Part shown: positions 26,920-59,096 of the stretch, in pieces
How positions within the stretch are numbered: the first letter of the stretch is position 1
Layout: each line of letters opens with the position of its first letter
Assembly (NCBI GenBank): GCA_029862205.1
Contig: JAOTXT010000009.1
Coordinates: 21,266 to 85,265, forward strand
Source of the DNA: Paracoccaceae bacterium
GTDB taxonomy: Bacteria > Pseudomonadota > Alphaproteobacteria > Rhodobacterales > Rhodobacteraceae
Reading direction: 5' to 3'
DNA: 64,000 nt
The notes under the pieces: generated by a model
Told to the model about the DNA's origin: nothing
What the model saw: the letters and a program-made list of their open reading frames with translations, nothing else
Database searches by the model: none
Program-made: the position numbers and the translations under genes

Positions 26920-27147
26920 TGCTTTCCTCCCTGATCCAGCACGTTCGCAATACACGGTCGCCGGAGCCTTCGCGGCTCCCTTGAATCCCGACTAGAAGAT
27001 CAGACCCTGCGGTGCAAGGCTGTCAGGGAGTCCATCAAGTAGGTGCTGGAACGGGAATGCACGGTCGGCGCAGGCATCGCGGCCGCCGTGGCAAGTGCAA
27101 AGGCTCGGTTGGAACGAAATCCGGTGCGGATGATCCGCGACGCCCGG

Positions 27148-27528
27148 TTAAAGATCGGCCGACAGACCAATTTCCAGGAACGCGCTGACCATGCCGGCGA
27201 CCAGAGCCAGGATCTTTGGGCGCAGTGCGTGGGTCACGATCGCGTCTTCCAACAGCTCGGCACGTTCCGACAAGCTGGCATAGCCGAACGATCCGGCGGT
27301 GCCCGCCAGCGAATGCGCGAGCGTTTCGAGTTCGGTAAGTGTCGCCTGCTGTTCGGCGGTCTGCCCAGCCTTGAGCATTGTTGCCAAGCTCGCGGCGCGA
27401 TGGATCTTCTCGCCGGCGCGGTGAAGGAACGCGGCGCGCGCCGTCTCGATCCGATCGCGCAGTTGCGTCCGGCCGTCCAAGGCGGTTGCACCGTCCAAAC
27501 GGTCCACATGCACATTCATGGAAGTCAC
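27148..27528 (-). CDS. Hpt domain protein (histidine phosphotransfer)
   Basis: A 126-residue helical protein whose LAHSLAGTAGSFGYASLSERAELL matches the HPt signature; the phosphorylatable His is His72. HPt proteins pass phosphoryl groups between receiver domains. The GTG at 27528 has GAGG 6 bp upstream; the ATG at 27519 is the alternative. It is transcribed divergently from the TPR-exporter/synthase/kinase/regulator operon that begins at 27979, and could be the relay partner for the two receivers in the synthase. No membrane segment is present. Confidence 0.8.
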   Translation of the reverse strand: MTSMNVHVDRLDGATALDGRTQLRDRIETARAAFLHRAGEKIHRAASLATMLKAGQTAEQQATLTELETLAHSLAGTAGSFGYASLSERAELLEDAIVTHALRPKILALVAGMVSAFLEIGLSADL

Positions 27529-27978
27529 TTGCCCCCTCGCTTTGCGAACCCGCAACTGGTCACTCGAGATATTCTAAATAGAGCAGTGATTTTTTGGTAT
27601 TTTTGTGACGTATTCGCGCGACGCTACCTAAGATGAAATTGGTGAATTCGAGGACAACCGGCAGTTGATATACGCTCCCAAATCGGAATTTTTTTTGCTC
27701 TGACCTCAACTATGAGCAGACAACCCGGCCAGCTGAGCCGAGATTCGATGATCGCGCGGGATGGGATGTGGCGATGTCATATAACTCTTTGATAATAATT
27801 GATAAAATCATCAACGCTAGAGACCTGCAATGCGGAGAGATGCCGAGTCGCGGCTGCTGAACGCCCGTTTCTCACCTCGCTTCCATCTCTGAAATGCGTT
27901 TTTTATCCGTGACCTATGGTGATATCTTAATGCCAAGCCTGAGTAACCAGGCGCGCACCGGGAGGTGGGGGTCGCTCT
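27529..27978. other. AT-rich intergenic region upstream of the exporter/synthase operon
   Basis: About 450 bp without a convincing gene between the Hpt gene and the TPR exporter. It is clearly more AT-rich than its surroundings and must hold divergent promoters. An A/T-rich dyad TTGAT-N6-ATCAA lies at 27799-27814. The TPR gene has GGGAGG at about 27959-27964, and a purine-rich GTGGGGG just before its ATG. No recognised riboswitch, including a c-di-GMP type, was seen. Confidence 0.6.
27799..27814. promoter_or_regulatory. Candidate dyad operator TTGAT-N6-ATCAA
   Basis: TTGAT (27799-27803) and ATCAA (27810-27814) form an inverted repeat with a 6-bp spacer, 165 bp before the exporter ATG. It resembles an FNR half-site pair but with 6 rather than 4 bp between arms, so a different regulator is more likely, or chance in AT-rich sequence. 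Confidence 0.35.
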
Positions 27979-30618
27979 ATGACCATGCGTTGGATGATTG
28001 CGCTTACGGTTCTGGTCGTGCTTGGCATCAGCGCGGTCAAGTTCGTCGATGCGCGCGAAGCCGAGGGCTTGATCGCCCAGGCCCGCGAGGCCGCGCGCGG
28101 TGACGAGAACGTACGATCTGCCGATCTCTTTGCTCAAGCCCTGCGTCAGAATCCCTGGCTCCGCCGCGAGATCCTGCGCGAATACGCCGATCAACTACTT
28201 TATTCCGGCCGTGCCGCCGAGGCCATTCCGCTGTTTCACGAGACGCTGGAGACCCCGCGGTTGTCCGCCCTCGATACTGAGCGGGCGCGGCGCAGCCTGG
28301 CGCTCGCCTATCTTTGGTCGGGCAATCATACGGAGGCGGTGGCGGCTTACGAGGAGGCTCTGCAGCGCAAGCCCAGCGACAGCGATCTGGAGCGGAACTA
28401 TGTCCAGGCGCTGATCGGCGCCGCGCGCGACCTTGGCCGCCAGGACCGGAACCATGAAGCAGTTGAGCGTTTCGCCGCCGTGATTGAGCGCGTCCCCGAA
28501 CGCCGTGCCGAATTGTTGCGGGAATATGCCGACCAGCTGACCTATTCCGGTCGGGCCGCCGAGGCAGTCGCGCTCTATAATGAGGTTTTGGCCCAGCCGC
28601 AGCTTTCCGAAACCGATCTGCAAAACGCGAACCGAGGCCTCGCGCTGGCCTATCTCTGGTCCGGCAATCACGAGCAAGCGAAGGCGGCCTACGAGCAGGC
28701 AATGCGGCTGATGCCGCGCGACGCCGACATGACGAAGAACTATGTCGAGGCGATCATCGGCGCTGCCCGCAACGCGGCCCGGCGGGACCAGAACCGGGAT
28801 GCGGCCGAGCGTTTCGCGACCGCGATCAGCCTGGCGCCCAATCGCCGCGGCGAATTGCTGCGTGAATATGCGGACCAGCTAACCTTTTCCGGCCGGGCGG
28901 CGGTGGCGGTCGAGTATTATCTCGAGATCATCGCGACCCAGGCGGATCAGCCGACCGATCCGCAACTGCTTTCGGCGCTGGGCCTGGCGTTGCTCTGGTC
29001 CGGACAGGCCGACGCGGCACGTCAGGTCTACGAGGAGGTGGTGGAGCTTCTCCCCGAGGATGCGGACGCTCGGAAGAGCCTGGCCGAGGCGGTTGTCGCC
29101 CAGGCCCGCAAGGCCGCCTCCCAGAACGAAAATGCATCGTCGGCCGCGTTGTTCGCCCGAGCGATCGCTTTGTCGCCCGACCAGCGCGCGGAGTGGCTGA
29201 AGGAATACGCCGACCAGCTCACCTATGCCCAGCAGGCCGACAAGGCGATCCAGCTCTACGAAGAAATCCTGAGCAATTCGGGGCTGACCGGCGAACGCAG
29301 CGCCGAGGTGCGCCTGGCGATGGCGCTGGCCCAGGCCTGGTCCGGGGCGCTGGCGGAAGCGCTTGGCGAGTACGACTCGCTGATCGCCGAGGACCCGGCG
29401 AATACGCGGGCGCGGCTGGGCCGGGCCGAGGTTCTGTCGTGGCTGCATGACCACGACGCGGCGTCCTCGGAGCTGAGCCAGATCCTGGAGACCGACCCGG
29501 AGGACGATGTGGCGCGCCGCCGTCTGGCCCGGTCCGAGAGCTATCGCGGCCGTCACCGTCAGGCCATCGCGCTCGCCAAACCGCTGCTCCAGGCCGATCC
29601 GTCGGACGAGGACGCGGCGATCATCATCGCCCAGGCGCAGCGCTGGATGGGCCGCCCGGACCTGGCGATCATAACGGTTGAAGGGCTGCTGGCCATCAAC
29701 CCCGGCAGCGTGCGCGCACAACGCCTACGCACCGAATTGATGAACGACCGCCGTGCCCGCAGCTCGTTCGGCACGTCCTACTCTGATCAATCCGACGATT
29801 TGGGCATCGCGCGCGCCGGACTTCGGCAAAGCTTCAGCGTGAACGATGGGCGCACCGGTTTTGGCCCGGAAGTCCGATATATCAACTACGACCCCGAGGG
29901 TGCCGATGGGGTCGACGTGGTCATGGTGGGCGGGCATTTCCGTCACCGTTTCAGCGACGAGGTCGAGCTCAATTCTGCATTCTTCCTGAACCAGCAGGAA
30001 GGGGTGAACGACGAGACGCTGTTCACGCACGATTCCTACATCACTCTCTACCCCGACGATGCCTGGCGCGTCGACATCGGCGCCAGCCGCTCGACGCTGG
30101 ACAACATCACCTCGCTGAACCAGGGCCTGACCGTCGATACGTTCAGCGGGTCGGTGGATTTTTGGCCGGCAAGCGACATCAAGCTGACCGGGCGGGCCGC
30201 CTGGTCGGACTATTCGGACGGCAATGCGCGGTGGTGGTTCCAGGGGGAGGTCCTGCACCAACTGATCAGTGAGTCGCCGGAGCTGTGGCTGGGCGCGCGC
30301 TATACGCGCTTTGCCTTCGAAAAGCAGCTGGCCAACGGCTACTTCAACCCGGAAGAACTGCAATCGATCGAGTCGACTCTGAAGCTGTCGGGCGTCCTGC
30401 TGGGCAAGACCGTCTATGAACTGCAGGGAAGCGCGGGCTACGAGAACGCCAATCCCGGATCGGGCATGTTCATCTGGTCGGCGGGGCTGAAGCTGCGCCA
30501 TCCGATCGCCAAGAACGTGGTGCTCGAAGCCACGGCCGCCCACTCGTCATCTACGCTGGGCAGCGATTCCGGTTTCGAGCGCACGACCGTGGGCCTTGGC
30601 CTGAACGTGCGGTGGTGA
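27979..30618 (+). CDS. TPR-repeat outer-membrane exporter (BcsC/PgaA-like)
   Basis: An 879-residue protein with an N-terminal signal/anchor (MTMRWMIALTVLVVLGISAV), then a long helical TPR region (about residues 27-600) and a C-terminal beta-barrel (about 605-879) ending in an aromatic residue (LGLNVRW), typical of outer-membrane barrels. Four near-identical ~113-residue units carry REYADQL at residues 67, 181, 295 and KEYADQL at 408. This plan matches BcsC/PgaA, which export exopolysaccharide across the outer membrane. It stops 1 bp before the synthase ATG. Which polysaccharide it exports is unknown. Confidence 0.85.
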   Translation: MTMRWMIALTVLVVLGISAVKFVDAREAEGLIAQAREAARGDENVRSADLFAQALRQNPWLRREILREYADQLLYSGRAAEAIPLFHETLETPRLSALDTERARRSLALAYLWSGNHTEAVAAYEEALQRKPSDSDLERNYVQALIGAARDLGRQDRNHEAVERFAAVIERVPERRAELLREYADQLTYSGRAAEAVALYNEVLAQPQLSETDLQNANRGLALAYLWSGNHEQAKAAYEQAMRLMPRDADMTKNYVEAIIGAARNAARRDQNRDAAERFATAISLAPNRRGELLREYADQLTFSGRAAVAVEYYLEIIATQADQPTDPQLLSALGLALLWSGQADAARQVYEEVVELLPEDADARKSLAEAVVAQARKAASQNENASSAALFARAIALSPDQRAEWLKEYADQLTYAQQADKAIQLYEEILSNSGLTGERSAEVRLAMALAQAWSGALAEALGEYDSLIAEDPANTRARLGRAEVLSWLHDHDAASSELSQILETDPEDDVARRRLARSESYRGRHRQAIALAKPLLQADPSDEDAAIIIAQAQRWMGRPDLAIITVEGLLAINPGSVRAQRLRTELMNDRRARSSFGTSYSDQSDDLGIARAGLRQSFSVNDGRTGFGPEVRYINYDPEGADGVDVVMVGGHFRHRFSDEVELNSAFFLNQQEGVNDETLFTHDSYITLYPDDAWRVDIGASRSTLDNITSLNQGLTVDTFSGSVDFWPASDIKLTGRAAWSDYSDGNARWWFQGEVLHQLISESPELWLGARYTRFAFEKQLANGYFNPEELQSIESTLKLSGVLLGKTVYELQGSAGYENANPGSGMFIWSAGLKLRHPIAKNVVLEATAAHSSSTLGSDSGFERTTVGLGLNVRW

Positions 30619-30619
30619 C

Positions 30620-33600
30620 ATGGCAAGCTCGGCGCACTCCACCACGCTGTCACGCACGGCGAATGTGCTTCTGGTCGAGGACGAGCCCGAGCTCGCCGAC
30701 CTGCTGAAGGCCGAGCTCGAGGCCGCGGGCTATCATGTGGAGCTTGGCCGCAACGGCCGGGAGGGCCTCGACTATCTGGGCCACGCGACACCAGACGTCA
30801 TCGTCACTGACGTGATGATGCCCGAAATGGATGGGCTGGAATTCATCCGCATTCTGCGCGCCAAGCCGGATTGCGCGCAGGTTCCCGTCATCGTGCTCTC
30901 AAGCAAGCGCAAGATCGCCGATATCGTCGCCGGGTTCGATACCGGCGCGGACGACTATATCACCAAACCGGTCGAGCCGGCCGAGCTCGTCGCCCGGGTC
31001 CATGCCAAAGTCGACCGGCCAACGGTTCCTGCGGACCAGCTTTGGCATGTGCGCCATTCCAATGTCGTTTCGGAGAAAGCGTTCCGGATCGAGCTGCAGG
31101 CCGAAAGCCAGCGTGCGCTGCGGGTCGGCTATCCGATCACGGTGGCACTGGTGGCATTGTCCGAAGCGGCGCAGCCGCCTCCGGAGACCGCCGGCGCCGT
31201 AACGCGCCAAATTCAAACCGGCCTGGCTTCGGAAGTGCGCCCGCTCGACCTGATTGGTCGGTCGGGCGAAAACGGCTTCCTGCTGATGATGCCTGGGGCG
31301 ACGGAGTTCGAGGCGGCGCGGCGGTTGCAGCGCCTTTCGCAGCACATCGCCGGCGATCCGCTGGACGAGGATTGCCAGTCGCCCGGCATGCCGCCCCTGA
31401 TCGGCTACGGCCGTGTGATGCCGGGAGAGGACGCGGACGCGGCGTTGGAGCGGCTGCAGGGGACATTGCTGCGGGCGGCCGTGCAGCGCGGTCACAAGCC
31501 CGTGCGCTACCGGCCCAGCATGGGCGCGCCGAGTCAGGTCCCGTTCCTGGAGCGCTTTGATCTGTTGAAGCGCGAGCGCCTGTTCTGGCGCGATACGCTG
31601 GGCTCGAGCGGTCCGGTTACCGTGCCCGAAACGGCGCCGGAGCGTATCTCGCGGCTGCTTCTGGTCGAAGACGACCCGGACCTGGCAGCGAAGATCACCG
31701 CTGACCTGGAGGAGGCGGGGTATTTCGTCGAACATGCGAGCAACGGGCGCGAGGGGATCGAGCACGCGAAGCTCTGGGTCCCCGACCTGATCGTTAGCGA
31801 CGTGATGATGCCCGAGATGAACGGGCTCGAATTTCTCTCGGCGATCCGCGCCGACGAAGAACTGCGCCGCACGCCGGTCATCATGCTCACCACCCGGCGC
31901 AAGGCCGCGCAGATCGTCGAGGGGTTCGGCCTAGGAGCGGACGACTATGTGACCAAGCCGGTCGATCCGGCGGAGCTCGTTGCCCGGGTGCGCGCCAAGA
32001 TCGAGCGCCCGCCGGTGCCCGGCGAGGACCTGCGCCAGGACCGCCAATCCGGGTTCCTGTCTGCCACCGCATTCGCCGTGGCTTGCCAGGCCGAGATGCA
32101 TCGCGCGGTGCGGGCCGGGTACGACCTGACCGCCGTCAGCATTGATTTCGCCGAGCGCGTTCCGGTGCGCGAGCGGATCGGCCCTGGGGCGGACGGGCCA
32201 ATCGCGCGCCAGGTTGCCGAAGTGCTCGCAACAGAGCTCCGGACCCTCGACCTGATCGGGCGCTCGGCCGATGGCGGCTATCTGGTCCTGATGCCCGAGG
32301 TCACCGAGGACGAGGCCGCCAAGAAGCTGGAGCGTATCTCGCAGACCCTGATCGGCAAGGTCTTCACGGCCTGCGGCGAGTCCCTGCATCTGACGCCGAT
32401 CATGGGCTATGCGGACGCAATTCCGGCCGAGGACTCGGACGACCTGCTCGAGCGCATGCGCATCGCGCAATCCCATGCCGAGGCGCATCTGGACCTGCAG
32501 CCTGCGCGCTACCAGACCAGCATGGTCGTGCCGCCGAAGCCGGACAAGATGCCGAAGACGTTCCGCGGCCTGATCGAGCGGCTGCGTTTTCCGCTGCAGA
32601 TCGCCGCGACCTTCGTGCTGGGATGGGGTCTTCCCTACGCCATCTATCATTTTTCCGCGATGCTCGGCCACGACATCACAAAGGCAGCCTATATCGTCGT
32701 GGTGGTCAGCCTCGTCCTCACCTGCACCCTGATCTGGGTCGAAGGCTTCATGTCGCTGAAACGCATCGATCCGCCTGCGGACGATGACATGGAGTATCCG
32801 ACCGCGAGCGCGATCATCGCGGCCTATCTGCCGAACGAGGCAGCGACAATCATCTCGACGCTCGAGGCAATGCTGAACGTGGATTATCCAGGCCAGATTC
32901 AGATCATCCTGGCCTACAACACGCCCAAGGACATGCCGATCGAGAAGACCCTGCGCGAGATGGCGGCGAAGGACTCTCGGCTGGAAGTCGTGCGGGTGAT
33001 CGGCAGCACCTCGAAGGCGCAGAACGTGAACGCGGCGATCGCCTATTCGAAGGGGGCGTTCACAGCGATCTTCGACGCGGATCATCAGCCCGACCCGGAC
33101 AGCTTCACCCGCGCCTGGCAGTGGATCAACTCGGGCGCCGACGTGGTCCAGGGCCATTGCCTGATCCGCAACGGCGACGCGTCCTGGGTCGCGCGCATGG
33201 TCGCGGTCGAGTTCGAGCAGATCTATACCGTCAGCCATCCGGGCCGCGCGCGTCTGCACAAGTTCGGCATCTTCGGCGGCAGCAACGGCTTTTGGCGCAC
33301 CGATCTTCTGCGCCGCATCCGGATGCGCGGTTTCATGCTAACCGAGGATATCGACTCGGCGCTGCGCGTGGTCGAGGAGGGGGGTAACATCGTCTCGGAC
33401 CCTTATCTGATCTCGCGCGAACTGTCGCCAACGACGTTCAAGGGCCTGGCCAATCAGAGGCTCAGATGGGCGCAGGGTTGGTATCAGGTGACGAATACCA
33501 GGCTACCGACCGCGCTCAAGTCGAAGCACCTGTCGATCAGACAGAAGGTGGGCATGTTCTATCTGCTGGCCTGGCGCGAATTCTTCCCCTGGATTTCGAT

Positions 33601-33898
33601 GCAGATCGTGCCGATCATTGCTTATTGGGCGATCCAAGCGGGCTCGCTGGCGGCGATCGACTGGACCGTGCCTCTGCTCTTGATAATCACGATCTATGTG
33701 ATGTCGACGGGCCCCGGGCAGATGGTTTTCATCAGCCGGCTTGCTGACCCCGAGATCCGAAAGCGGCGCTGGTGGCTGGTTTTCTATGTCTTCATCGCGT
33801 TCTTCATGTATGCGGAATTCAAGAATCTTTTGTCCCGTGTCTCGAACATCAAGGAATGGCTGAAGGAGAAGGAGTGGAAGGTCACTCCGCGCAGTTGA
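30620..33898 (+). CDS. Receiver-GGDEF-like-receiver-GGDEF-like-GT2 membrane polysaccharide synthase
   Basis: A 1092-residue fusion. Residues ~14-132: receiver (phospho-Asp64 in IVTDVMMPEM). ~150-300: GGDEF-like with the catalytic loop degenerate (RSGENGFLLMMP). ~345-462: second receiver (Asp394 in IVSDVMMPEM). ~478-632: second GGDEF-like, also degenerate (RSADGGYLVLMP). Two membrane spans follow (~655-712). The GT2 domain (~727-960) has DAD (819-821), TED (908-910) and QRLRW (946-950), the processive beta-glycosyltransferase signature of cellulose/PNAG/hyaluronan synthases, then C-terminal spans. The synthase part looks active; the GGDEF loops cannot make c-di-GMP but may bind it or dimerise. 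Inferred role: exopolysaccharide polymerisation controlled by phosphorylation. Confidence 0.9.
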   Translation: MASSAHSTTLSRTANVLLVEDEPELADLLKAELEAAGYHVELGRNGREGLDYLGHATPDVIVTDVMMPEMDGLEFIRILRAKPDCAQVPVIVLSSKRKIADIVAGFDTGADDYITKPVEPAELVARVHAKVDRPTVPADQLWHVRHSNVVSEKAFRIELQAESQRALRVGYPITVALVALSEAAQPPPETAGAVTRQIQTGLASEVRPLDLIGRSGENGFLLMMPGATEFEAARRLQRLSQHIAGDPLDEDCQSPGMPPLIGYGRVMPGEDADAALERLQGTLLRAAVQRGHKPVRYRPSMGAPSQVPFLERFDLLKRERLFWRDTLGSSGPVTVPETAPERISRLLLVEDDPDLAAKITADLEEAGYFVEHASNGREGIEHAKLWVPDLIVSDVMMPEMNGLEFLSAIRADEELRRTPVIMLTTRRKAAQIVEGFGLGADDYVTKPVDPAELVARVRAKIERPPVPGEDLRQDRQSGFLSATAFAVACQAEMHRAVRAGYDLTAVSIDFAERVPVRERIGPGADGPIARQVAEVLATELRTLDLIGRSADGGYLVLMPEVTEDEAAKKLERISQTLIGKVFTACGESLHLTPIMGYADAIPAEDSDDLLERMRIAQSHAEAHLDLQPARYQTSMVVPPKPDKMPKTFRGLIERLRFPLQIAATFVLGWGLPYAIYHFSAMLGHDITKAAYIVVVVSLVLTCTLIWVEGFMSLKRIDPPADDDMEYPTASAIIAAYLPNEAATIISTLEAMLNVDYPGQIQIILAYNTPKDMPIEKTLREMAAKDSRLEVVRVIGSTSKAQNVNAAIAYSKGAFTAIFDADHQPDPDSFTRAWQWINSGADVVQGHCLIRNGDASWVARMVAVEFEQIYTVSHPGRARLHKFGIFGGSNGFWRTDLLRRIRMRGFMLTEDIDSALRVVEEGGNIVSDPYLISRELSPTTFKGLANQRLRWAQGWYQVTNTRLPTALKSKHLSIRQKVGMFYLLAWREFFPWISMQIVPIIAYWAIQAGSLAAIDWTVPLLLIITIYVMSTGPGQMVFISRLADPEIRKRRWWLVFYVFIAFFMYAEFKNLLSRVSNIKEWLKEKEWKVTPRS

Positions 33899-33901
33899 GC
33901 A

Positions 33902-34651
33902 ATGAGCGATCAAACGACTGACACTTTTGGAGACAAGACCGGGCTGTGCGCACGCGGTGTGCCGGTCTCGCCCGGCAACGAGATCATATCCTTTGTCAGC
34001 CACGAATTCCGGGCACCGCTCGGCGCGCTGATGGGGGCGCTCAGCATCATTGAGAGCGGGGTCTTGGGCGATCTGCCCCCGAAGATGCGGCCGATGCTGG
34101 AAATGGCGCAGCGTAATGCCCGCCGGCTGCTGGCGTTGTCCGACGATCTCATCGACGCGGACGTCATCGAATCTGGGTGCCTGAAGCTGCATTTGTCGCC
34201 GGTCGATCTTTCGGACGTCGTGCGCGACTGCGTTTCCGCGAACCGGGTGATCGCCGATCGGAAGGGCGTCGCGGTCGAGGTTGCCGCCATCGATCGGCCG
34301 GTGAAAGTCCGGGCCGATCGAAAAAGGCTCGAGCAGGTTCTGACCAACCTGTTGACCAACGCAATCAAGTTCTCGGAGGAAGGCGGCACCGTCGATGTCG
34401 CCGTGGTGCATGAGGGGCAGGGCGCGCGGATCACTGTCCGTGACCGCGGACCCGGCATTCCCGCTGACCTGCAGCCGCGCATCTTCCAGAAATTTGCCAA
34501 GTCAGACGACGGTAATCACGCCGGCAACGGCCTGGGGCTCTATATCTCGAAGGCATTCGTCGAGGCCCAGGATGGGCAGATCGAGTTTACCAGCCAGCCC
34601 GGCGATACGCGCTTCGTGATTGTGCTGCCATTGTCCTTCACGGACGAATAA
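33902..34651 (+). CDS. Soluble sensor histidine kinase
   Basis: A 249-residue kinase with no N-terminal sensor or membrane span. The phosphorylated His34 lies in FVSHEFRAPLGALMG (HisKA), followed by the HATPase domain with N-box NLLTNAIKFSE, G1 DRGPGIPAD and G2 NGLGLYISKAFVE. The ATG is 3 bp after the synthase stop. It most likely phosphorylates the response regulator downstream, the Hpt protein upstream, or the receivers of the synthase. Its signal is unknown; it may act with an unlinked sensor. Confidence 0.9.
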   Translation: MSDQTTDTFGDKTGLCARGVPVSPGNEIISFVSHEFRAPLGALMGALSIIESGVLGDLPPKMRPMLEMAQRNARRLLALSDDLIDADVIESGCLKLHLSPVDLSDVVRDCVSANRVIADRKGVAVEVAAIDRPVKVRADRKRLEQVLTNLLTNAIKFSEEGGTVDVAVVHEGQGARITVRDRGPGIPADLQPRIFQKFAKSDDGNHAGNGLGLYISKAFVEAQDGQIEFTSQPGDTRFVIVLPLSFTDE

Positions 34652-34694
34652 CGTACCAGCACGGACAAGGCCGTTGGACGATCCGGTGGGAACA

Positions 34695-35063
34695 GTGCGT
34701 CGAATTCTTTGTGTCGATGATGATCCGGACGCGCGGGCGTTGCTCGAGATCGCGCTTGCAACGGTGGGCGGGTTCGATTTGCAGTTTTGTGCCTCGGGCG
34801 AACAGGCGCTTGGCGCGATCCCGGAATTCGCGCCCGATCTCGTGATCCTGGACGTCAAGATGCCGGGCTTGAATGGACCGGAGACCCTGGACGGTCTTCG
34901 TAAGCGTTCGAATGGCAGCGACTGCCCGGTGATCTTTCTGACAGCGGTCGCGCAGCCGGAGATTCTGGAGTCGCTTGGCGGCGTGGGCGCCGCGGCAATC
35001 GTAACCAAACCCTTCGATCCGATGACCCTGGCTGATACGGTCCGCGAGTTCCTGGACCGGTAG
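34695..35063 (+). CDS. Single-domain response regulator
   Basis: A 122-residue receiver with acidic pocket CVDDDPD at its start, phospho-Asp53 in LVILDVKMPG, and the conserved Thr and Lys (FLTAVAQ, VTKPFDP). There is no output domain, so it acts by protein contact or in a phosphorelay. The GTG at 34695 is chosen because RRILCVDDD is the natural receiver start and GGTGGGAAC lies upstream; the frame is open to 34620. It closes the exporter/synthase/kinase operon and faces a convergent NRPS-like gene. Confidence 0.85.
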   Translation: MRRILCVDDDPDARALLEIALATVGGFDLQFCASGEQALGAIPEFAPDLVILDVKMPGLNGPETLDGLRKRSNGSDCPVIFLTAVAQPEILESLGGVGAAAIVTKPFDPMTLADTVREFLDR

Positions 35064-35085: not shown

Positions 35086-37665
35086 TTACAGCGCTTCGCC
35101 CATCATGCGCGCGAGGTCGCCGACATAGGGCTCTCCGGTCAGATGGACCCGCCGTCCCGGAATGGCGGTCCCGCGGATTTCAACGACTTGAAGTGCGGGT
35201 AGGATGCGCTTCCATTTCGCTCGGCTATCGGGCGCGCCGGACGTGTAGAACGTAACCGGCCCGTCATAGGGCTGGGGCCGATACTGTTCGCGAACGCGGC
35301 GCCGGGCGTCCGCTTCATTCGCCGCATTGGCGGATGTGCGGGTCAGCCGAGACCTGGCCGATCGGAGATGATACGCCGACAATGCGTGGAGGCGTTTGGC
35401 ATAGCGCTTGAGGCGTTCGGCGACAAATGCGGCCCGCTGGCGCGCCGGCATTGCCGTCAGCTCGGACCAATACTCCCGGACCGGGCGGCCCGGCATGTAG
35501 GCTTCGACCGTGCCGCTTGGGAATTCGGCGTCGATCAATCCCAGATAGTCGACCGGCTGGTCCAGCGCGCGCAGGCGGTGTGCGGCTTCAAGCGCGACCA
35601 CGCCGCCCAAGCAATTTCCGCAAATACGATAGGGTCCGTGGGGCTGTTGGCGGCGGATCTCCGCGACCGCCTGCTGCGCCATCTCTTCGATGTCCGGCGG
35701 CGGCTCGGACCGGTCAATCAGGCGCAGGTTTTGTACGCCGTAGATTGGGTGCTCGGAGCCGATGCATTGGGCCAAAAGCCGGTATTCCAGCACGAATCCG
35801 CCAACACCATGGACGCAGAACAAGGGCAGCCCGTCGCCCTCTGGCGTCAGCCTCACCAACGCGCCGCCGCGTGTCTCGTCGTCGAAACTTTGATCCAGGC
35901 CGGCGACGGTCGGCGCCGAGAAAAGGAACTCGGGCGTGCATAGAATTTCGAGGCGGGCATTGAGCACGAGAAGCAACTCGGTCGCTTGCAGCGAGTCTCC
36001 GCCCATCTCGAAGAAGTCGTCGTTCAACCCGACTTGGTCGAGATCGAGTGTTTCCTCGAAGCAGGCGGCGATCTTGCGCTGGCGATCGGTTTCGGGCGGC
36101 ACATAGGGCTCGGCCAGGTCGGGCCGTGTCCTGTCGGGTACTGGCAGGGCCTTCCGGTCGATCTTGCGGTTCGCGTCCAGCGGAAAGGTGTCCAGCGCCA
36201 GATAGCGCACCGGTACCATGGCTTGGGGCAGCGAATTTGACAGGGCGCGGCGCAGCGAGGGGATTGCCGGAGGGTCGCCAGCGGGCGTCAGATAGGCGAC
36301 CAATTGCTGAGATCCGGGGCGGTCTTCGCGCACCATCACCAAGGCGCGGTCGACGCCCGGCTGTGCCGTGAGTGCCGCCTCGACCGCGGCGATGTCGATA
36401 CGGATGCCGCGGATCTTCGCCTGAAAATCCTTGCGCCCCAGATATTCCAGGCAATTGCCTGGGCCCAGCCGGCCCAGATCGCCGGTCCGGTAGATCCGCC
36501 CTTTGGGGTCATCCGGGTCGGGGGCAAAGGCGCGGGCGGTCAGATCGGGCTGTCGCCAGTAGCCGGTGGCGAGGTAGCGGCTTGCGACAGCGATCTCGCC
36601 TTCTGGAACTCGGGCGCCATCCTCGTCGATGAGCCGGATATTCATGTCCGTGATCGGATAGCCGATTGGAACCACGGTTTCCGGCACCTGGCTGTCGTGG
36701 GTGATGAAGAACTGGCGCACGATCCCGGTCTCGGTGGCGCCGAGGCCGTTCACCAGGACGGTGTGGGGTCCGAAACGCTCGATAAACAGCCGGACATGGC
36801 GTGGTTCGCTGCGGTCCCCTTCCAGGCGGATCAGGCGCAAATCGGGCAGGGCAGGGGCGACCCCCGCCAATTGCTCGAAGATCATCGGGACGGAGTGAAA
36901 GATGGTGATCCGGTCGCGTTCCAGCCACCCGGCCATTGCCTCGATCCCTTGGCCCTGCAGGTCGAAGGGATGGATCGCGGCACCGTTCAACAGCGCGCCG
37001 AACAGGCTTGAGACGGTGCCGCTGAAGCTGCAGGACTGGATCATCGACAGCCGGTCCTCCGGGCCGATTTCCAGATTGTTGGTATAGCGCATCACGTTGT
37101 GCAGCACGTTGCGATGGCAATCGACCACACCCTTAGGCGTGCCGGTCGAGCCGGACGTGTAGAAGAGATACGCTGGGCGGTCAGGGGCGAGATCGAGCGC
37201 CGGGTCGTCCGCTTTCCCCCCGGTGCCCGTCCCGGACACGTCAAGCACGGATGTTTCGCCGGCCAGGCTCTGCGCCAGTGCGTGATCGGCCCGGTCCGTG
37301 ACGATGAGCTCCGCGCCACTCTGCGTACGATAGCTTTGGAGGTCCTCTGCGGGATGGCGCGGATCGAGCGCCAGGTAGATCTTTCCCGCCTTCAAAGTGC
37401 CCAGGATCGCCGCAACGAGATCCGCGCCCTGCGGGAACAACAGGCAGACCGGCTCGGCGCCATCGCCGCGCCGGTCGAGGATTTGGTGCGCGATCCGATT
37501 GCTCGCCGCGTCCAGGTCGCCATAGGTCAAGCGCGTGGCGCCCGCGCTGACCGCGATCCGGTCGCGATGGGCCACGGCGATCTTCGCGAACCGGTCGGAA
37601 ATCGACTGTTCGATCTCACTCGGATCGAAGGAGCGATTGGAACCGGCTGAGCCCTTGGTTCGCAT
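35086..37665 (-). CDS. Single-module NRPS-like protein: adenylation, carrier and thioesterase domains
   Basis: An 859-residue protein. The adenylation domain spans about residues 20-510 with A3 FYTSGSTGTPKGV (168-180), A5 NGLGATETG, A7 YRTGDLG and A10 DANRKIDRK. The carrier domain has phosphopantetheine Ser558 in FEMGGDSLQATEL. The thioesterase (~600-850) has the nucleophile elbow GNCLGG with Cys685 in place of Ser, an Asp712, and a C-terminal His (VHLTGEPYVG). There is no condensation domain, so it should activate one amino or hydroxy acid and release it as a free, oligomeric or cyclised product. The substrate code was not decoded. The start is the ATG at 37665. Confidence 0.9.
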   Translation of the reverse strand: MRTKGSAGSNRSFDPSEIEQSISDRFAKIAVAHRDRIAVSAGATRLTYGDLDAASNRIAHQILDRRGDGAEPVCLLFPQGADLVAAILGTLKAGKIYLALDPRHPAEDLQSYRTQSGAELIVTDRADHALAQSLAGETSVLDVSGTGTGGKADDPALDLAPDRPAYLFYTSGSTGTPKGVVDCHRNVLHNVMRYTNNLEIGPEDRLSMIQSCSFSGTVSSLFGALLNGAAIHPFDLQGQGIEAMAGWLERDRITIFHSVPMIFEQLAGVAPALPDLRLIRLEGDRSEPRHVRLFIERFGPHTVLVNGLGATETGIVRQFFITHDSQVPETVVPIGYPITDMNIRLIDEDGARVPEGEIAVASRYLATGYWRQPDLTARAFAPDPDDPKGRIYRTGDLGRLGPGNCLEYLGRKDFQAKIRGIRIDIAAVEAALTAQPGVDRALVMVREDRPGSQQLVAYLTPAGDPPAIPSLRRALSNSLPQAMVPVRYLALDTFPLDANRKIDRKALPVPDRTRPDLAEPYVPPETDRQRKIAACFEETLDLDQVGLNDDFFEMGGDSLQATELLLVLNARLEILCTPEFLFSAPTVAGLDQSFDDETRGGALVRLTPEGDGLPLFCVHGVGGFVLEYRLLAQCIGSEHPIYGVQNLRLIDRSEPPPDIEEMAQQAVAEIRRQQPHGPYRICGNCLGGVVALEAAHRLRALDQPVDYLGLIDAEFPSGTVEAYMPGRPVREYWSELTAMPARQRAAFVAERLKRYAKRLHALSAYHLRSARSRLTRTSANAANEADARRRVREQYRPQPYDGPVTFYTSGAPDSRAKWKRILPALQVVEIRGTAIPGRRVHLTGEPYVGDLARMMGEAL

Positions 37666-53325: not shown

Positions 53326-55647
53326 CTACTTCGTATCGCCCAGCGCGCGGACCGCTTCGTTCATCACCGCCTGGTGCTGCTCGTTGCTGACGAAGGCGGG
53401 CGAATTGACCTTCGACCACAGGTCTTCGTCGTTCATGTTCTGGTGGCAGCCCATGCAGAGGCCCGTGCGCTCGATCCGGTCACGCATCTCCTTCGGCAGT
53501 GGGCCCGTCAGCGGCCAATGCGAGCCGACCGTGACCAACACCTCGTCGTCGCGCGTCACAATCTGGCTGAGATCGTGATCCAGTGTCGGCACCGGCTGCG
53601 CCTGGAGCTGCGTCTGCTCTGGGATGATCTCGCCCAGCGCCGTCTCCAGATCGACATAGAAGCCGTCCTCGTAGCCCTTCATGAAGCGGCCATCCGAGAT
53701 GCCGTAACCCAAAGCCTTCGGGTTGTTGTGGCAGCTCTCGCAGGTCCTGGCTTCGCGGCCCGCGGTGTGTGGTTGCACGGCGGCGTGGTCCAGTCCCTTC
53801 TTGCCGTCTGGCGTGATCCAGGTCTCGTTGTGCGCGACCGTGTTGCCGTCCTTGTCGATCACCGTGGTGATGACTTGGCAGCCGGGCATCAGCGGGCTGA
53901 CGCGTCCTTCGCCGTTGATCCCCAACGTCGGCTCTTCCCAGCGCAGATACGAGCGGGTCTCGGATACTTTGCCCGGACCGGTCAGGCCGTTCGTGCCCAG
54001 CGGATAGTCGGCGGTCAGGCCGGAGTCCGTGCGGGCATTCGCCGTCGTGATCCAGTCGATGTCGGTCTTTCCTTCCGAGTAGTCGACCGTAACGTGGCAG
54101 CCGTAGCACTGAGGTGCCCAGTCGGCGTGGCAGGCATAGCACTCCAAGTTCTCCATGTGTCTGTCGACACGGCCCATCGCGACCATGGCATTCGGGCTTT
54201 TCCAGGTGCCGTCGGTGGCAATCTGCTTCAGGAGCGGCACCTTGAAATCGAGCCCGGAGGCCGAGTGCATGATCACCTCGACACCGTTCTTCACGACATT
54301 GCCGAAGGGGTTCCCGCGGGTGGTCAGCAGGTAGCCGTCCCGGCCTTCGTAGATGGTCGCGAAATATTGCTCCTCGGTGATGTCGTCGCCCAGGCCGCGG
54401 GCAGCATCGCCGATATCGGCGTCGTGCTCTTCGCCATAGCCGAGTGGTAGCTCCCACGGGAACTTCGAAACGGTGCCGTGGCAATCCTCGCACTCGATCT
54501 CGACCTGCGCCAGTGTCGTGCCGGGCAGGTTGCCATCGCCGTGCATGTCGACGGTGGTGTGGCAATCCTGGCATAGCATCCCGCCCGTCGGGTTCTCGGG
54601 GCGCGATTCGATCTGGTGGTGCAGGTCATCCTTGATGAAGGAATAGCTCTTGGTGTGCAGCTTCGGCTGTTTCCCGCCGGTCGGCCCATAGGGCGAGCCG
54701 TAGGGGAATTCCATGATGCCCTGATAGCTGACACCGATCCGCTTGCCGCGGTTGTGGCAGCTTACGCAGGTCTCGGTCGGAATGCCGGTATAGGTCGTGT
54801 CGCCCACATCGACGACCGACTTGCGTGTGGCTTGCATCCGGTGAACCAGCAGCTTGCCCGGCTGTTCCTTCGTGATCGTCGGATCGCCGCCTTCGTAGAA
54901 TCCCTCGTTCGAGTACGGCACATGACAGGACGAGCAGCCCGCGCCGCGGTAGTCACCGCGTTTTTCACGGCCCGAGACGCCAACATGGCAGCGCTGGCAT
55001 TGCTGCCGGCTATAGGTGATGCCCGCCAGATTCGGGTGCTGAGCGACCGCTTCGACGTCGACATCCGGAACCTGCTTCATCTCGGATGGCATCTGATCGG
55101 GATGCGCGGCGACATAGGCCGTCATGTACTCTTTATATGCGTCGGTCCCAACGCTCGGCGTCGGGCCGTCATCGTCGACCATGTCATAGTTACCCCAGAC
55201 GACCTCCATGCTCTCCTGCACGCCCCAGGACCAAAGGTTTCCCTGCAATTTGCCGGCTTCGGTGTTCATCAGCGATTTAGCCAGCCGGTCCGCATAACCC
55301 GCATGGCACTGGCCGCAGGATTTCTCGGCGATCCAGACCGATCCCGGATCGGGATAGAATGTGTGCGGGCCTCCGGCCTCGGTCAACGGGGCCGGCGCGC
55401 CGGTATGGGCCGCCTCGGCATCCGTTGCCTCCGGGTTGCCACCGTGACAGGTGACACAGCCCTGCGGGTCGTTGAATTCCTCGCCGATCGCCACCACCGC
55501 ATCATGCATCGGGCCATCGACGAATTGCTCGATTCCCTCATGGCATGACATGCAGCCGCTGCTTTGCGCCTGCGCGGGTTGCGGTGTCATGATCCCGTAA
55601 GCAGTGCCTAGGCCCAAGATTATCGCGATCGCGAGCACCCGTTTCAT
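53326..55647 (-). CDS. Periplasmic 12-heme c-type cytochrome
   Basis: A 773-residue exported protein (signal up to about residue 27-28, QAQ) with twelve CXXCH heme-attachment motifs: CMSCH, CVTCH, CGQCH, CQRCH, CSSCH, CVSCH, CQDCH, CEDCH, CYACH, CYGCH, CESCH and CMGCH. No CXXCK or other unusual motif was noted. It belongs to the multiheme cytochrome c superfamily, but the subfamily is not recognised; reductase, oxidase or electron-shuttle roles are all possible. The ATG has AGGAGGG upstream. It is divergent from the Cys-rich FNR-type regulator and ccmFHI-hemA, which can supply the heme and attach it. Membrane anchors are absent after the signal. Confidence 0.9.
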   Translation of the reverse strand: MKRVLAIAIILGLGTAYGIMTPQPAQAQSSGCMSCHEGIEQFVDGPMHDAVVAIGEEFNDPQGCVTCHGGNPEATDAEAAHTGAPAPLTEAGGPHTFYPDPGSVWIAEKSCGQCHAGYADRLAKSLMNTEAGKLQGNLWSWGVQESMEVVWGNYDMVDDDGPTPSVGTDAYKEYMTAYVAAHPDQMPSEMKQVPDVDVEAVAQHPNLAGITYSRQQCQRCHVGVSGREKRGDYRGAGCSSCHVPYSNEGFYEGGDPTITKEQPGKLLVHRMQATRKSVVDVGDTTYTGIPTETCVSCHNRGKRIGVSYQGIMEFPYGSPYGPTGGKQPKLHTKSYSFIKDDLHHQIESRPENPTGGMLCQDCHTTVDMHGDGNLPGTTLAQVEIECEDCHGTVSKFPWELPLGYGEEHDADIGDAARGLGDDITEEQYFATIYEGRDGYLLTTRGNPFGNVVKNGVEVIMHSASGLDFKVPLLKQIATDGTWKSPNAMVAMGRVDRHMENLECYACHADWAPQCYGCHVTVDYSEGKTDIDWITTANARTDSGLTADYPLGTNGLTGPGKVSETRSYLRWEEPTLGINGEGRVSPLMPGCQVITTVIDKDGNTVAHNETWITPDGKKGLDHAAVQPHTAGREARTCESCHNNPKALGYGISDGRFMKGYEDGFYVDLETALGEIIPEQTQLQAQPVPTLDHDLSQIVTRDDEVLVTVGSHWPLTGPLPKEMRDRIERTGLCMGCHQNMNDEDLWSKVNSPAFVSNEQHQAVMNEAVRALGDTK

Positions 55648-55841: not shown

Positions 55842-56639
55842 ATGGGAGAAACGCACCGAGACAGGGGGGCCGCGGATCAAATGCTGAACCGCCTGCCAAC
55901 TGCCAAAGGCAACATCTTCTGTGCCTGCGGCGCATTCGGTTGCCAATGCGCCGAGCTTTGCAGGTTTGGCGACAGCCAAGGGCTTGGGGCGTCCGTTCGA
56001 AGCCTGGCTCGCGGAGACCGGATCTACCCAAGCGATCAACCCTGTATGCGCTTCCATGTTGTGCGGACCGGCCTCGTTGCGACCTGCGCGATGACGCTGG
56101 ATGGGCGGCGGCAAATCCTTTGCCTTAACGTGGCTGGCGACGTGATCTGCGCGATGTCCGCGAAGGGCGCCGAATGCTGGTGCGAGGCGTTGGCGCCTAG
56201 TGAAATTTGCGAACTCGATCTTACGTCTCAGGCTGCGCGCCTGCGGGGCGAGCCGGGATTCTTGCGCGCGCTCTTCGACCTTGCGCATGACCGATTGGAA
56301 CGCTCGGCGGCGCACCTCATTGCGCTCGGCCGCTTGGACGGCATGGAGCGTCTGTGTGGATTCCTTGCGGAAATGACCCGTCGAACCGGGCGGCGCATTG
56401 GGCAGCGCTGGCTGGTCTGCCTGCCGATGTCCCGCGAGGACATTGCGGATTATCTGGGGTTGAACTCCGATACGGTGAGTCGGCTAATGACCCGGATCAA
56501 ACAGGCCGGACTGGTGCGGTTCCTGTCGGTCTCCGAGTTCGAGGTCGCGTCCCTTGAACGGCTGGAGGACCGAGTTCCCAATTCACTTGCCCGGCACCTG
56601 TCGGATTGCGAGCAGCCGGACGAGGAATTGATGCTATGA
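55842..56639 (+). CDS. Crp/Fnr family transcriptional regulator, Cys-rich FNR type
   Basis: A 265-residue regulator. The N-terminal CACGAFGCQCAELC cluster resembles the [4Fe-4S] cysteine array of FNR, and further Cys lie in the cyclic-nucleotide-like domain, so redox or oxygen sensing is likely. The HTH reads MSREDIADYLGLNSDTVSRLM, with SR and a Thr/Asp where FNR has E-x-x-S-R. A possible later start is the ATG at 55881, with an AGGGGGG 12 bp before it. The stop overlaps the ccmF start (ATGA), so it is coupled to the cytochrome-maturation genes and probably controls them and the divergent cytochrome. Confidence 0.88.
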   Translation: MGETHRDRGAADQMLNRLPTAKGNIFCACGAFGCQCAELCRFGDSQGLGASVRSLARGDRIYPSDQPCMRFHVVRTGLVATCAMTLDGRRQILCLNVAGDVICAMSAKGAECWCEALAPSEICELDLTSQAARLRGEPGFLRALFDLAHDRLERSAAHLIALGRLDGMERLCGFLAEMTRRTGRRIGQRWLVCLPMSREDIADYLGLNSDTVSRLMTRIKQAGLVRFLSVSEFEVASLERLEDRVPNSLARHLSDCEQPDEELML

Positions 56640-58615
56640 TCGTCGAACTGGGCCACTACGCGCTGTGTCTGGCGCTGGTCGCCGCGGCTCTGCAAGCGGT
56701 GACCCCGCTTTGGGGCGTGCGGAACGACAATGTTGCCGCGATGCGTTTCGGCGACTCTGCAGCGCAGGTGCAGTTCCTGGCCACGCTGGGTGCCTTCGCG
56801 GCGCTGACCTATGCCTATGTGGTCTCGGACTTCTCGGTCCGCACCGTCGCGCTGAACTCGCATTCCGCGAAGCCGTTGATTTACCGGATCACCGGCGTTT
56901 GGGCGAACCATGAAGGCTCGATGCTGCTCTGGGTGCTCGTCCTGGCGCTTTTTGGCGCGGCGATCGCGACCTTCGCGCGGGCCGTGCCGTTGGCCATGCG
57001 TGCACGGGTGCTGGCGGTCCAGGCGATGATCGGGGTCGGCTTCTTCGCTTTCATCCTACTGACGTCGAACCCGTTCGAGCGTCTGCCCCTGCCGCCGATG
57101 GACGGGCAGGGGATGAACCCGCTCCTGCAGGATCCAGGCATCGCGCTGCATCCGCCGTTTCTCTATATCGGCTATGTCGGGTTCTCGACCGCCTTCTCAT
57201 TTGCCATCGCCGCACTGATGGCGGGCAAGGTCGAGCCGGCCTGGGCGCGATGGATGCGGCCTTGGGTGCTGGGCGCCTGGGCGGCGCTGACCTTCGGCAT
57301 CGCATTAGGCAGCTGGTGGGCCTACTACGAGCTTGGCTGGGGCGGGTTCTGGTTCTGGGATCCGGTCGAGAACGCCTCGTTCATGCCCTGGCTGCTGGGA
57401 ACCGCGCTGCTGCACTCGGCGATCGTGGTCGAGAAGCGCGACGCCCTGCAACGCTGGACCATCCTGCTGGCGATCTTCACCTTCTCGCTCAGCCTGATGG
57501 GGACCTTCCTGGTGCGATCGGGCATCCTGTCCTCGGTCCATGCTTTCGCCAACGATCCCGAGCGCGGGGCGTTCATCCTGGTTCTGCTGGCGATTTCGCT
57601 GGTGGGGTCGATGGTTCTGTTCGCGATCCGCGCACCGGCGATCCGCGAACGCGGGGTCTTCTCCCCGATTTCGCGCGAGGGAGGGTTGCTTCTGAACAAC
57701 CTGCTTCTCGCCGCCGCCTGTGGAGTTGTCTTCGTTGGCACGCTTTATCCCCTACTCTTGGATATTGCGACAGGTGACCGGATCACCGTGGGTGCGCCAT
57801 ATTTCAATCAGACCTTCGGGCCGATCTTCGCGCTGGTTGCGATCGCCGCGGCGATCGGGCCGTTTCTCTCGTGGAAGCGTGCCGATGCAAGGGCGATCGC
57901 CCATCGGCTGCGGATCGTTCTGGCGCTTTCGTTGCTCGTGCCTGTGATTTGGGCAGCATTGACCGGTTGGCGCGAGCCGCTTGGCCTGGCGGGGTTGGGC
58001 CTTGCTGCCTGGCTTTTCACCGCGACCCTGGTGGATCTCGGCCGCCGCGCGGGTATTGGCGCAGCGCCCATCGCGACGGTATTGCGCAGGCTCGTCGGAC
58101 TGCCCCGGTCGGCATGGGGTCTCTATGCCGGTCATGCGGGACTCGCGATCTGCATCTCCGGCGTCGTCGCGATTTCCGTTTGGAAGGTCGAGGCAATCCA
58201 GACCCAGCAGCTGGGATCCCCGGTCCCAGTCGGCGGCTACGAGTTCACGCTGGTCGATGTTAGCCAACGGGCTGGGCCGAACTACCAGTCCTCGATCGCG
58301 ACGGTTGCGGTCTCGAGGGACGGCGAGCAGGTCGGCTTGCTATTCCCAGAACGGCGCTGGTATCCGGTCGAGCGTAAACCGACCACCGAGGCGGGCATCC
58401 GCACTCTCTGGCACGGCGACCTTTATGCGGTCCTAGGCGACCCTGCGCCCGAGGGCCAGTTCGTCACGCGCTATTACTATAATCCGGGCGTCGCCTGGAT
58501 GTGGCTTGGCGCCACGCTGATGGCGCTGGGCGGGTTGCTGACTATCTCGGACCGGCGCCTGCGGGTCGGGGCGCCGGGCGCGCGCAAGGTGCCCGTCCAG
58601 GCACAACCGGCATGA
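56636..58615 (+). CDS. ccmF: Cytochrome c-type biogenesis protein CcmF
   Basis: A 659-residue membrane protein of the CcmF/NrfE family, which takes heme from CcmE or directly and joins it to apocytochrome CXXCH sites. The WWD heme-binding region is WGGFWFWDPVENASFMPWL (about residues 235-253), with supporting His in GVWANHEG, ALHPPFLYIGY and LLHSAIV. About 13-15 spans fit the family, and the length is normal. It starts at ATG 56636 overlapping the regulator stop. No ccmE or ccmABC is in this locus, so this may be a dedicated lyase like NrfE. Confidence 0.93.
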   Translation: MIVELGHYALCLALVAAALQAVTPLWGVRNDNVAAMRFGDSAAQVQFLATLGAFAALTYAYVVSDFSVRTVALNSHSAKPLIYRITGVWANHEGSMLLWVLVLALFGAAIATFARAVPLAMRARVLAVQAMIGVGFFAFILLTSNPFERLPLPPMDGQGMNPLLQDPGIALHPPFLYIGYVGFSTAFSFAIAALMAGKVEPAWARWMRPWVLGAWAALTFGIALGSWWAYYELGWGGFWFWDPVENASFMPWLLGTALLHSAIVVEKRDALQRWTILLAIFTFSLSLMGTFLVRSGILSSVHAFANDPERGAFILVLLAISLVGSMVLFAIRAPAIRERGVFSPISREGGLLLNNLLLAAACGVVFVGTLYPLLLDIATGDRITVGAPYFNQTFGPIFALVAIAAAIGPFLSWKRADARAIAHRLRIVLALSLLVPVIWAALTGWREPLGLAGLGLAAWLFTATLVDLGRRAGIGAAPIATVLRRLVGLPRSAWGLYAGHAGLAICISGVVAISVWKVEAIQTQQLGSPVPVGGYEFTLVDVSQRAGPNYQSSIATVAVSRDGEQVGLLFPERRWYPVERKPTTEAGIRTLWHGDLYAVLGDPAPEGQFVTRYYYNPGVAWMWLGATLMALGGLLTISDRRLRVGAPGARKVPVQAQPA

Positions 58616-58622
58616 GGGCAGG

Positions 58623-59096
58623 ATGATGGCGCGGATAGTGATGTTCATGGCGGCCGTGATGCTCGCTTTCGCCGTTCCTTCGCCGGTGCAAGCGATCGAT
58701 CCTGACGAGATGTTCACCGACCTGGCGCAGGAAGAGCGGGCCCGCGAAATCGGGAAGCAACTGCGCTGCCTGGTCTGCCAGAACCAGTCGATCTTCGACT
58801 CGAATGCAGGATTGGCGCGGGATCTCAGAATGGTGGTGCGAGAACGGATCACGGCGGGCGACAACGACGACCAAATCATCACCTTCGTCGCGGAGCGGTT
58901 CGGCGACTATGTTCTGCTCGAGCCGCCCATCAAGCAAACGACGTACGCGCTTTGGGCCGCGCCGGTCGTGTTCCTCATCGCCGCGCTGGGCCTTGGCGCA
59001 GTTTATTTGCGCCGGCGCCAGCCGGTCATCGAAGATGGGCTGAGCGAGGCTGAGCGTGCCGAGGCGCAACGCCTGCTGAAGGGAGGCGACGCATGA
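58623..59096 (+). CDS. ccmH: Cytochrome c-type biogenesis protein CcmH
   Basis: A 157-residue thioredoxin-like reductase that keeps apocytochrome cysteines reduced for heme attachment. A signal or membrane anchor covers residues 1-24. The redox pair is in LRCLVCQNQSI (Cys49, Cys52), and a C-terminal span (ALWAAPVVFLIAALGLGAVYL) anchors it. It overlaps ccmI by 4 bp (GCATGA region). Confidence 0.95.
   Translation: MMARIVMFMAAVMLAFAVPSPVQAIDPDEMFTDLAQEERAREIGKQLRCLVCQNQSIFDSNAGLARDLRMVVRERITAGDNDDQIITFVAERFGDYVLLEPPIKQTTYALWAAPVVFLIAALGLGAVYLRRRQPVIEDGLSEAERAEAQRLLKGGDA

What the first reader, a model, noticed from the sequence alone, without database searches (positions are those of the whole stretch)
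27979..35063. Receiver-controlled polysaccharide synthase with its own TPR exporter, kinase and regulator
Seen: a TPR/beta-barrel exporter, a 1092-residue protein joining two receivers and two GGDEF-like domains to a GT2 synthase with DAD, TED and QRLRW motifs, a soluble kinase and a lone receiver, with gaps of 1-45 bp. Known: BcsA/PgaC-type synthases are normally activated by c-di-GMP through a PilZ domain or partner protein. Inference: here phosphorylation of two built-in receivers may gate polymerisation directly. I know of no named system with this architecture.
Basis: partly seen in the sequence, partly recalled or inferred. Interest (0 to 1): 0.85.

Follow-up and report, generated by a model that had tools for sequence, protein, structure and literature searches.

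The report
Phosphorelay-switched polysaccharide synthase with own exporter
This bacterial gene cluster encodes a predicted membrane enzyme for making a sugar polymer that is fused to two signal-receiver domains and sits beside a predicted outer-membrane exporter, a kinase, a lone receiver and a histidine phosphotransfer protein, so polymer production is likely switched by a phosphate relay acting directly on the enzyme rather than through a gene regulator.

Summary
At 27979-35063 lie a TPR/barrel exporter, a REC-GGDEF-REC-GGDEF-GT2 synthase, a kinase without a sensor domain and a lone receiver. One part was missed: a divergent Hpt phosphotransfer gene at 27148-27555 (minus strand). Two relatives in one unnamed actinobacterial family carry synthase-kinase-REC-Hpt as a tight string, so kinase, lone REC and Hpt look like one phosphorelay aimed at the synthase. 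In the window and the 120 listed relatives the receiver phospho-Asp is kept in 134 of 136 RECs, the GGDEF signature in 0 of 136 GGDEF-like domains: selection sits on phosphorylation, not on making c-di-GMP. Against this, both GGDEF-like domains of the window keep an I-site triad that is rare elsewhere (15 of 136), so c-di-GMP may be a second input in this clade. Models match PleD plus cellulose/hyaluronan synthases (synthase) and PgaA/BcsC/PelBC (exporter). Among sampled relatives of the host only its own genome has it. Ten searches of open-licence papers showed no description. Phosphate flow, gating and polymer are inferred. New variant of a known kind: a synthase-dependent exopolysaccharide machine whose synthase is itself the response regulator.

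The parts
27148..27555 (-). Hpt phosphotransfer protein (135 aa from a TTG; internal ATG at residue 13), likely phospho-His H81 in LAHSLAGTAGSFG; divergent from the operon
   Evidence: PF01627 33.0 bits over cut-off 24.6; aligns with the Hpt genes next to synthases in L102 and L108, LAHxLAG shared by all three; third-position G+C 0.74
27556..27978 (.). divergent intergenic region between Hpt gene and exporter, likely holding the promoters
   Evidence: G+C 48.5% against 64.4% for the window; function inferred, no promoter scan was run
27979..30618 (+). TPR + 16-stranded beta-barrel predicted outer-membrane polysaccharide exporter (879 aa) with N-terminal hydrophobic segment
30620..33898 (+). 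receiver-controlled GT2 polysaccharide synthase: REC1 (about 13-133), GGDEF-like 1 (about 138-300), REC2 (about 343-465), GGDEF-like 2 (about 468-634), two long helices before the GT2 (646-712), GT2 (about 727-960), C-terminal helices
   Evidence: Pfam; model pLDDT 85.9, pTM 0.80; PleD and cellulose/hyaluronan synthase matches
30809..30811 (+). codon of D64, predicted phospho-acceptor of REC1
   Evidence: position; family conservation
31799..31801 (+). codon of D394, predicted phospho-acceptor of REC2
   Evidence: position; Asp in 41 of 42 aligned proteins
33902..34651 (+). soluble histidine kinase (HisKA + HATPase_c), H-box H34, no sensor domain found
   Evidence: Pfam; nearest relatives 90, 81 and 74% identical
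34686..35063 (+). lone receiver protein (start uncertain: 34620, 34674, 34686 or 34695)
   Evidence: PF00072 84.6 bits; a lone REC follows the kinase gene in L098, L102 and L108 too

Best explanation
The locus encodes a predicted synthase-dependent exopolysaccharide machine in which the synthase is fused to two receivers with intact phosphorylation residues, and polymer output is likely switched when a kinase-REC-Hpt phosphorelay phosphorylates those receivers. Proposed flow (inferred, Spo0-like topology): the kinase autophosphorylates on H34, passes phosphate to the lone REC, then to the Hpt (H81), then to D64 and D394 of the synthase. Phosphorylation would change REC packing in a synthase dimer; the GGDEF-like domains, which have lost the cyclase signature, would act as transmitter to the membrane GT2 domain. 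The GT2 domain would polymerise a nucleotide-sugar and pass the chain through its own membrane helices; the TPR/barrel protein would carry it across the outer membrane. In this clade c-di-GMP may be a second ligand at the retained I-sites. Shown: gene order, domains, residues, family conservation, linked Hpt. Predicted: folds. Inferred: phosphate flow, dimer, sign of regulation, gating, polymer.
For: Phospho-Asp kept in 134 of 136 RECs and Lys in 130 of 136, at least one REC in each of 121 proteins; GT2 catalytic residues D819, D821, D910, Q946, R947, R949, W950 in 42 of 42 aligned proteins; GG[DE]EF in 0 of 136 GGDEF-like domains, an acid at the third position in 7 of 136. No PilZ in the synthase. 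Signalling genes adjoin the synthase in 5 of 9 loci examined including the window: order GT-kinase gene-REC in window, L098, L102, L108; kinase directly upstream in L099. Hpt in window, L102, L108. Exporter relatives show the same longest-contig length as synthase relatives in four clear cases (228489, 251721, 189402, 204274) and one weaker (7765). Exporter fold PgaA/BcsC/PelBC-like. REC phosphorylation rearranging a REC-GGDEF dimer is described for DgcR (PMC8041772, abstract and section list seen).
Against: No experiment. L091, L097 and L101 show no kinase by three tblastn kinase queries within about 18-20 kb; L100 ends 261 bases past the synthase. L102 and L108 are one family, so the Hpt link rests on two lineages; the Hpt profile was built from those three sequences and found no Hpt in the other six loci. 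In L102 the REC part and the GT2 part of the synthase lie in different frames, a frameshift or sequence error. The kinase is not among the 8 relatives at E <= 1e-40 on the contigs of the 65% and 64% identical synthases. The L098 kinase-like gene lacks an ATPase domain. The conserved REC-GGDEF linker is RPPVP-like, so the DgcR coiled-coil register shift cannot simply be transferred. The 120 relatives are those most like a REC-bearing query, which biases towards RECs. The clade keeps I-sites, which points to c-di-GMP.
Confidence: 0.6

Rival explanations
1. The GGDEF-like domains are c-di-GMP receptors of the PelD/PopA kind, and c-di-GMP is the main switch of the synthase; the receivers only modulate it.
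For: Both window GGDEF-like domains keep RxxD plus the arginine aligned with PleD R390 (R207/D210 and R541/D544 plus a third Arg in each); in the window and its three nearest relatives 7 of 8 domains keep the triad against 8 of 128 in the rest. The host has three other GGDEF proteins over the Pfam cut-off, so c-di-GMP is probably present. PelD uses RxxD in a degenerate GGDEF to activate Pel (PMC8461298, passages seen).
Against: RxxD in only 46 of 136 and the full triad in 15 of 136 domains while phospho-Asp is in 134 of 136, so c-di-GMP at this site cannot be the family's common switch. The four sequences are related, not independent.
Confidence: 0.25
2. The GT2 domain is not a processive polymer synthase but a membrane glycosyltransferase making a short glycolipid or decorating a carrier.
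Confidence: 0.13
3. The receivers serve localisation or complex assembly (or act as a phosphate sink for the relay) and do not set polymerisation rate.
For: PopA, a REC-REC-GGDEF protein, works as a c-di-GMP receptor in cell-cycle control rather than as an enzyme (PMC10333796, passage seen; its role in localisation is recalled). 106 of 121 proteins have one REC and the window two, so one REC suffices.
Against: Covalent fusion to the catalytic domain is kept across phyla (one search names Chloroflexota, Acidobacteriota, Actinomycetota and a Novosphingobium MAG).
Confidence: 0.15

Closest known systems
PNAG system PgaABCD (synthase PgaC, exporter PgaA)
   Different: Far below both family cut-offs (422.3 and 366.65 bits); synthase carries receivers; no PgaB or PgaD recognised among the six proteins scanned around it; E. 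coli PgaCD is switched by c-di-GMP (PMC8461298, passages), though staphylococcal PNAG synthesis is said not to need it (PMC10333796, passage).
Cellulose synthase BcsA/BcsC
   Different: No PilZ domain found; 59.8 bits against a cut-off of 699.1; REC-GGDEF modules at the N-terminus.
PleD, PopA and DgcR (REC-GGDEF proteins)
   Same: REC-GGDEF modules share sequence with PleD (E 4.6e-33) and domain folds (the PleD rows have rmsd 14-19 A, so domains match but not their arrangement).
   Different: GGDEF signature kept in 0 of 136 domains; the output is a membrane glycosyltransferase.
PelD (degenerate GGDEF activator of Pel synthesis)
   Different: PelD is a separate protein with a GAF domain and acts in a complex with a GT4 enzyme (PMC8461298, passages); here the domain is fused to GT2 with RECs, and RxxD is not a family feature.
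Spo0-type phosphorelay (kinase - lone REC - phosphotransferase - response regulator)
   Same: Same four roles encoded: kinase, lone REC, Hpt, multi-domain response regulator.
   Different: Terminal regulator is a membrane enzyme, not a DNA-binding protein; Spo0 wiring is recalled, not tested here.

Membership tests
PNAG synthase/exporter (PgaC, PgaA) | score over NCBIfam cut-off TIGR03937 / TIGR03939 | tested here: not met
   83.6 of 422.3 bits; 62.8 of 366.65 bits
PNAG synthase/exporter (PgaC, PgaA) | PgaA-like barrel fold | tested here: met
PNAG synthase/exporter (PgaC, PgaA) | PgaB deacetylase and PgaD partner in the operon | tested here: inconclusive
   None among the six proteins at 27-38 kb scanned or nine others; not every gene of the window was scanned and PgaD is small
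Cellulose synthase BcsA | PilZ domain and CelA score over cut-off | tested here: not met
   no PilZ in Pfam scan; TIGR03030 59.8 of 699.1 bits
Diguanylate cyclase (GGDEF) | GG[DE]EF signature | tested here: not met
   GENGF and ADGGY in the window; 0 of 136 in the family
Degenerate-GGDEF c-di-GMP receptor (PelD/PopA kind) | RxxD I-site retained | tested here: met
   both window modules R-D-R; not a feature of the wider family (15 of 136 domains)
Degenerate-GGDEF c-di-GMP receptor (PelD/PopA kind) | binds c-di-GMP | not testable with these tools
   needs ITC or similar
Response regulator | intact phosphorylation residues in REC (acid pair, Asp, Thr/Ser, Lys) | tested here: met
   E20/D21/D64/S94/K116 and E350/D351/D394/T424/K446; Asp in 134 of 136 RECs
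HK-REC-Hpt-REC phosphorelay | all four phosphorylatable parts encoded together | tested here: met
   window; L102 and L108
HK-REC-Hpt-REC phosphorelay | phosphotransfer between the parts | not testable with these tools
   biochemistry needed

The most novel reading that the evidence does not exclude
A dispersed family of response regulators whose output domain is itself the polysaccharide-making membrane enzyme: a complete four-step phosphorelay (kinase, lone REC, Hpt, REC) ends not at DNA but at a GT2 synthase, giving bacteria of several phyla a fast, transcription-free, phosphate-driven switch for exopolysaccharide, with dead GGDEF domains reused as the mechanical transmitter.
Probability: 0.48. 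Interest if true: 0.82.

Novelty: new variant of a known kind. Interest (0 to 1): 0.68.

Why it matters
The passages I saw describe Pel, alginate, E. coli PNAG (PMC8461298) and cellulose synthesis (PMC10333796) as switched after translation by c-di-GMP. A synthase that is itself a response regulator would show another, phosphorelay-based way to turn polymer synthesis on and off without gene expression. It would give a clean system for watching a REC signal pass through a cyclase-dead GGDEF domain to a membrane enzyme, and it would turn proteins now named 'response regulator' or 'diguanylate cyclase' (some of the 120 listed bear such names) into candidate polysaccharide synthases.

Tried and rejected
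Eight of those loci, used as genome handles, had no synthase (0 of 8). Viral-contig scan with the GT2 part found none. Plasmid tblastn found one Streptomyces record, without annotation at the locus. I first expected the GGDEF-like domains to be general c-di-GMP receptors because of RxxD; the family count rejected this as a family feature but it survives for the window clade. I considered PNAG or cellulose as product and rejected naming one. Kinase conservation was tested by protein search: 8 proteins at E <= 1e-40 including the window's own, one of them on a known synthase contig length (228489). A profile search of the exporter in the PDB gave TPR matches in the 60 rows shown and says nothing on the barrel. 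Nine further window genes were scanned; the rest of the window was not.

The figure of 3387 proteins is all matches at E <= 1e-3 and may include other receiver or GT2 proteins; only the best 120 were listed and counted, so I make no claim on how many share the architecture beyond those.

Literature: ten searches, nine on combinations of receiver, GGDEF, glycosyltransferase, response regulator, phosphorelay, PgaC and cellulose synthase and one on PgaA-type exporters. No row listed described a REC-GGDEF-GT2 protein; I saw titles and starts of abstracts, and for (20 of 36; 15 of 320) only part of the rows. Papers seen by passages: PMC8461298, PMC10333796, PMC9384988, PMC8846402, PMC4558063 (no hit in the last for glycosyl or GGDEF); PMC8041772 abstract and section list only. 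The library holds open-licence papers only.

Full report
What is there. All four proteins have Pfam domains over threshold, and the codon-position G+C of exporter, synthase and kinase is that of real genes (the lone REC and the Hpt were too short for that scan and were checked: third-position G+C 0.71 and 0.74). The exporter, synthase and kinase are separated by 1 and 3 bases; the lone receiver follows by 22-43 bases or overlaps the kinase, depending on the start. A fifth gene belongs with them: on the minus strand at 27148-27555, 423 bases from the exporter and divergent, is a 135-residue Hpt protein (PF01627, 33.0 bits, cut-off 24.6). The spacer between it and the exporter has 48.5% G+C against 64.4% for the window, as expected for a promoter region (inference).

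What selection keeps. The protein search gave 3387 matches at E <= 1e-3, of which the best 120 were listed; the total may include other receiver or GT2 proteins and I count only the 120. In these plus the window (121 proteins, each with at least one REC at domain E 1e-5) there are 136 RECs and 136 GGDEF-like domains. The phospho-Asp is kept in 134 of 136 and the active-site Lys in 130 of 136. The GGDEF signature is kept in 0 of 136, an acid at its third position in 7 of 136 and RxxD in 46 of 136; the I-site triad including the residue aligned with PleD R390 in 15 of 136. The listed family therefore preserves phosphorylation and has discarded the cyclase signature; c-di-GMP binding at the I-site cannot be a general feature. 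Two cautions. The 120 were ranked by similarity to a REC-bearing query, so proteins without REC would be under-represented. And the window's own clade is an exception on the I-site: 7 of 8 domains in the window and its three nearest relatives keep the triad, against 8 of 128 in the rest. These four are related sequences (96, 65, 64% identity to the window), so this is a lead, not a test. The host encodes three other GGDEF proteins over the cut-off.

Wiring. Synthase, kinase gene and lone REC occur in that order in four: the window, L098 (reached through a Chloroflexota centre), L102 and L108 (one family, reached through an actinobacterial centre). L099 has a GAF-PAS kinase 50 bases upstream of the synthase. 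In L102 the kinase starts 4 bases after the synthase stop, the REC overlaps the kinase by 4 bases and a 118-residue Hpt overlaps the REC by one base; L108 has the same four, its Hpt with a possible GTG start overlapping the REC end. In L102 the REC part and the GT2 part of the synthase lie in different frames, a frameshift or sequence error that I left as it is. The Hpt proteins of window, L102 and L108 share LAHxLAGxxGSxG. L091, L097 and L101 showed no kinase with my queries; L100 is cut by the contig end. So signalling partners adjoin in 5 of 9 and the Hpt in 3 of 9, from two lineages. Kinase, lone REC and Hpt together fit a His-Asp-His-Asp relay better than a two-step circuit (inference). 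The L098 kinase-like protein has GAF and HisKA but no ATPase domain, so it may itself be a phosphotransferase; this is noted, not resolved.

Distribution. The system is rare per genome. At E 1e-30 only the window's own genome matched among 61 genomes drawn as relatives (four others of the genus lack it), 385 of the class, 390 of the order and 398 of the phylum; the sets overlap, and the larger searches scored only the top candidates per genome. Around Chloroflexota centres 1 of 251, 3 of 150 including that one and 1 of 2 (the centre itself) matched; around actinobacterial ones 3 of 198 and 2 of 35 including one of those; 0 of 8 among genomes of unrelated loci. The patchy pattern suggests gain by horizontal transfer (inference).

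Mechanism and standing. Best reading (0.60): phosphorelay control by direct phosphorylation of the synthase, with GGDEF-like domains as transmitters. REC modification rearranging a REC-GGDEF dimer is described for DgcR (PMC8041772, abstract), but the linker here is a conserved proline-containing RPPVP segment, so the coupling would differ. Main rival (0.25): c-di-GMP through the I-sites. Both can be true in this clade. No description appeared in ten searches of open-licence papers (listings seen); earlier mentions in closed journals cannot be excluded. I class it as a new variant of a known kind: a synthase-dependent exopolysaccharide system whose synthase is itself the response regulator.

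Noticed in passing
P0004, P0005, P0006, P0007: Double-length proteins (1538-1709 aa) with two RECs, read in full for P0004 and P0006 as a repeat of the whole REC-GGDEF-GT2 unit; in those two the first GT2 copy has lost catalytic letters, and in P0005 and P0007 a motif scan finds the DAD/TED/QRMRW set once only, in the last copy.
   Followed up: partly
L098:11010-11816: The kinase-like gene after the L098 synthase has GAF and HisKA but no ATPase domain, like a phosphotransferase rather than a kinase.
   Followed up: partly
L102:6601-9169: The REC part and the GT2 part of this synthase gene lie in different frames (frameshift or sequence error).
   Followed up: partly
L101:11467-13599: A PA14/fn3 protein starts 4 bases after an actinobacterial synthase gene and may be a partner of its product.
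   Followed up: no
window 35086-37665 (-): Free-standing adenylation-carrier-thioesterase protein (single NRPS-like module) convergent with the operon; no link to the polymer shown.
   Followed up: no
window 53326-55647 (-) and 56606-60523 (+): Protein with multi-haem cytochrome matches (Cytochrome_C7, MtrC/MtrF-like), near CcmF and CcmH/CycH-type cytochrome assembly genes.
   Followed up: no
window 27043-27636 (+): An open frame opposite the Hpt gene has a weaker third-position G+C (0.64 against 0.74) and is probably not a gene.
   Followed up: partly
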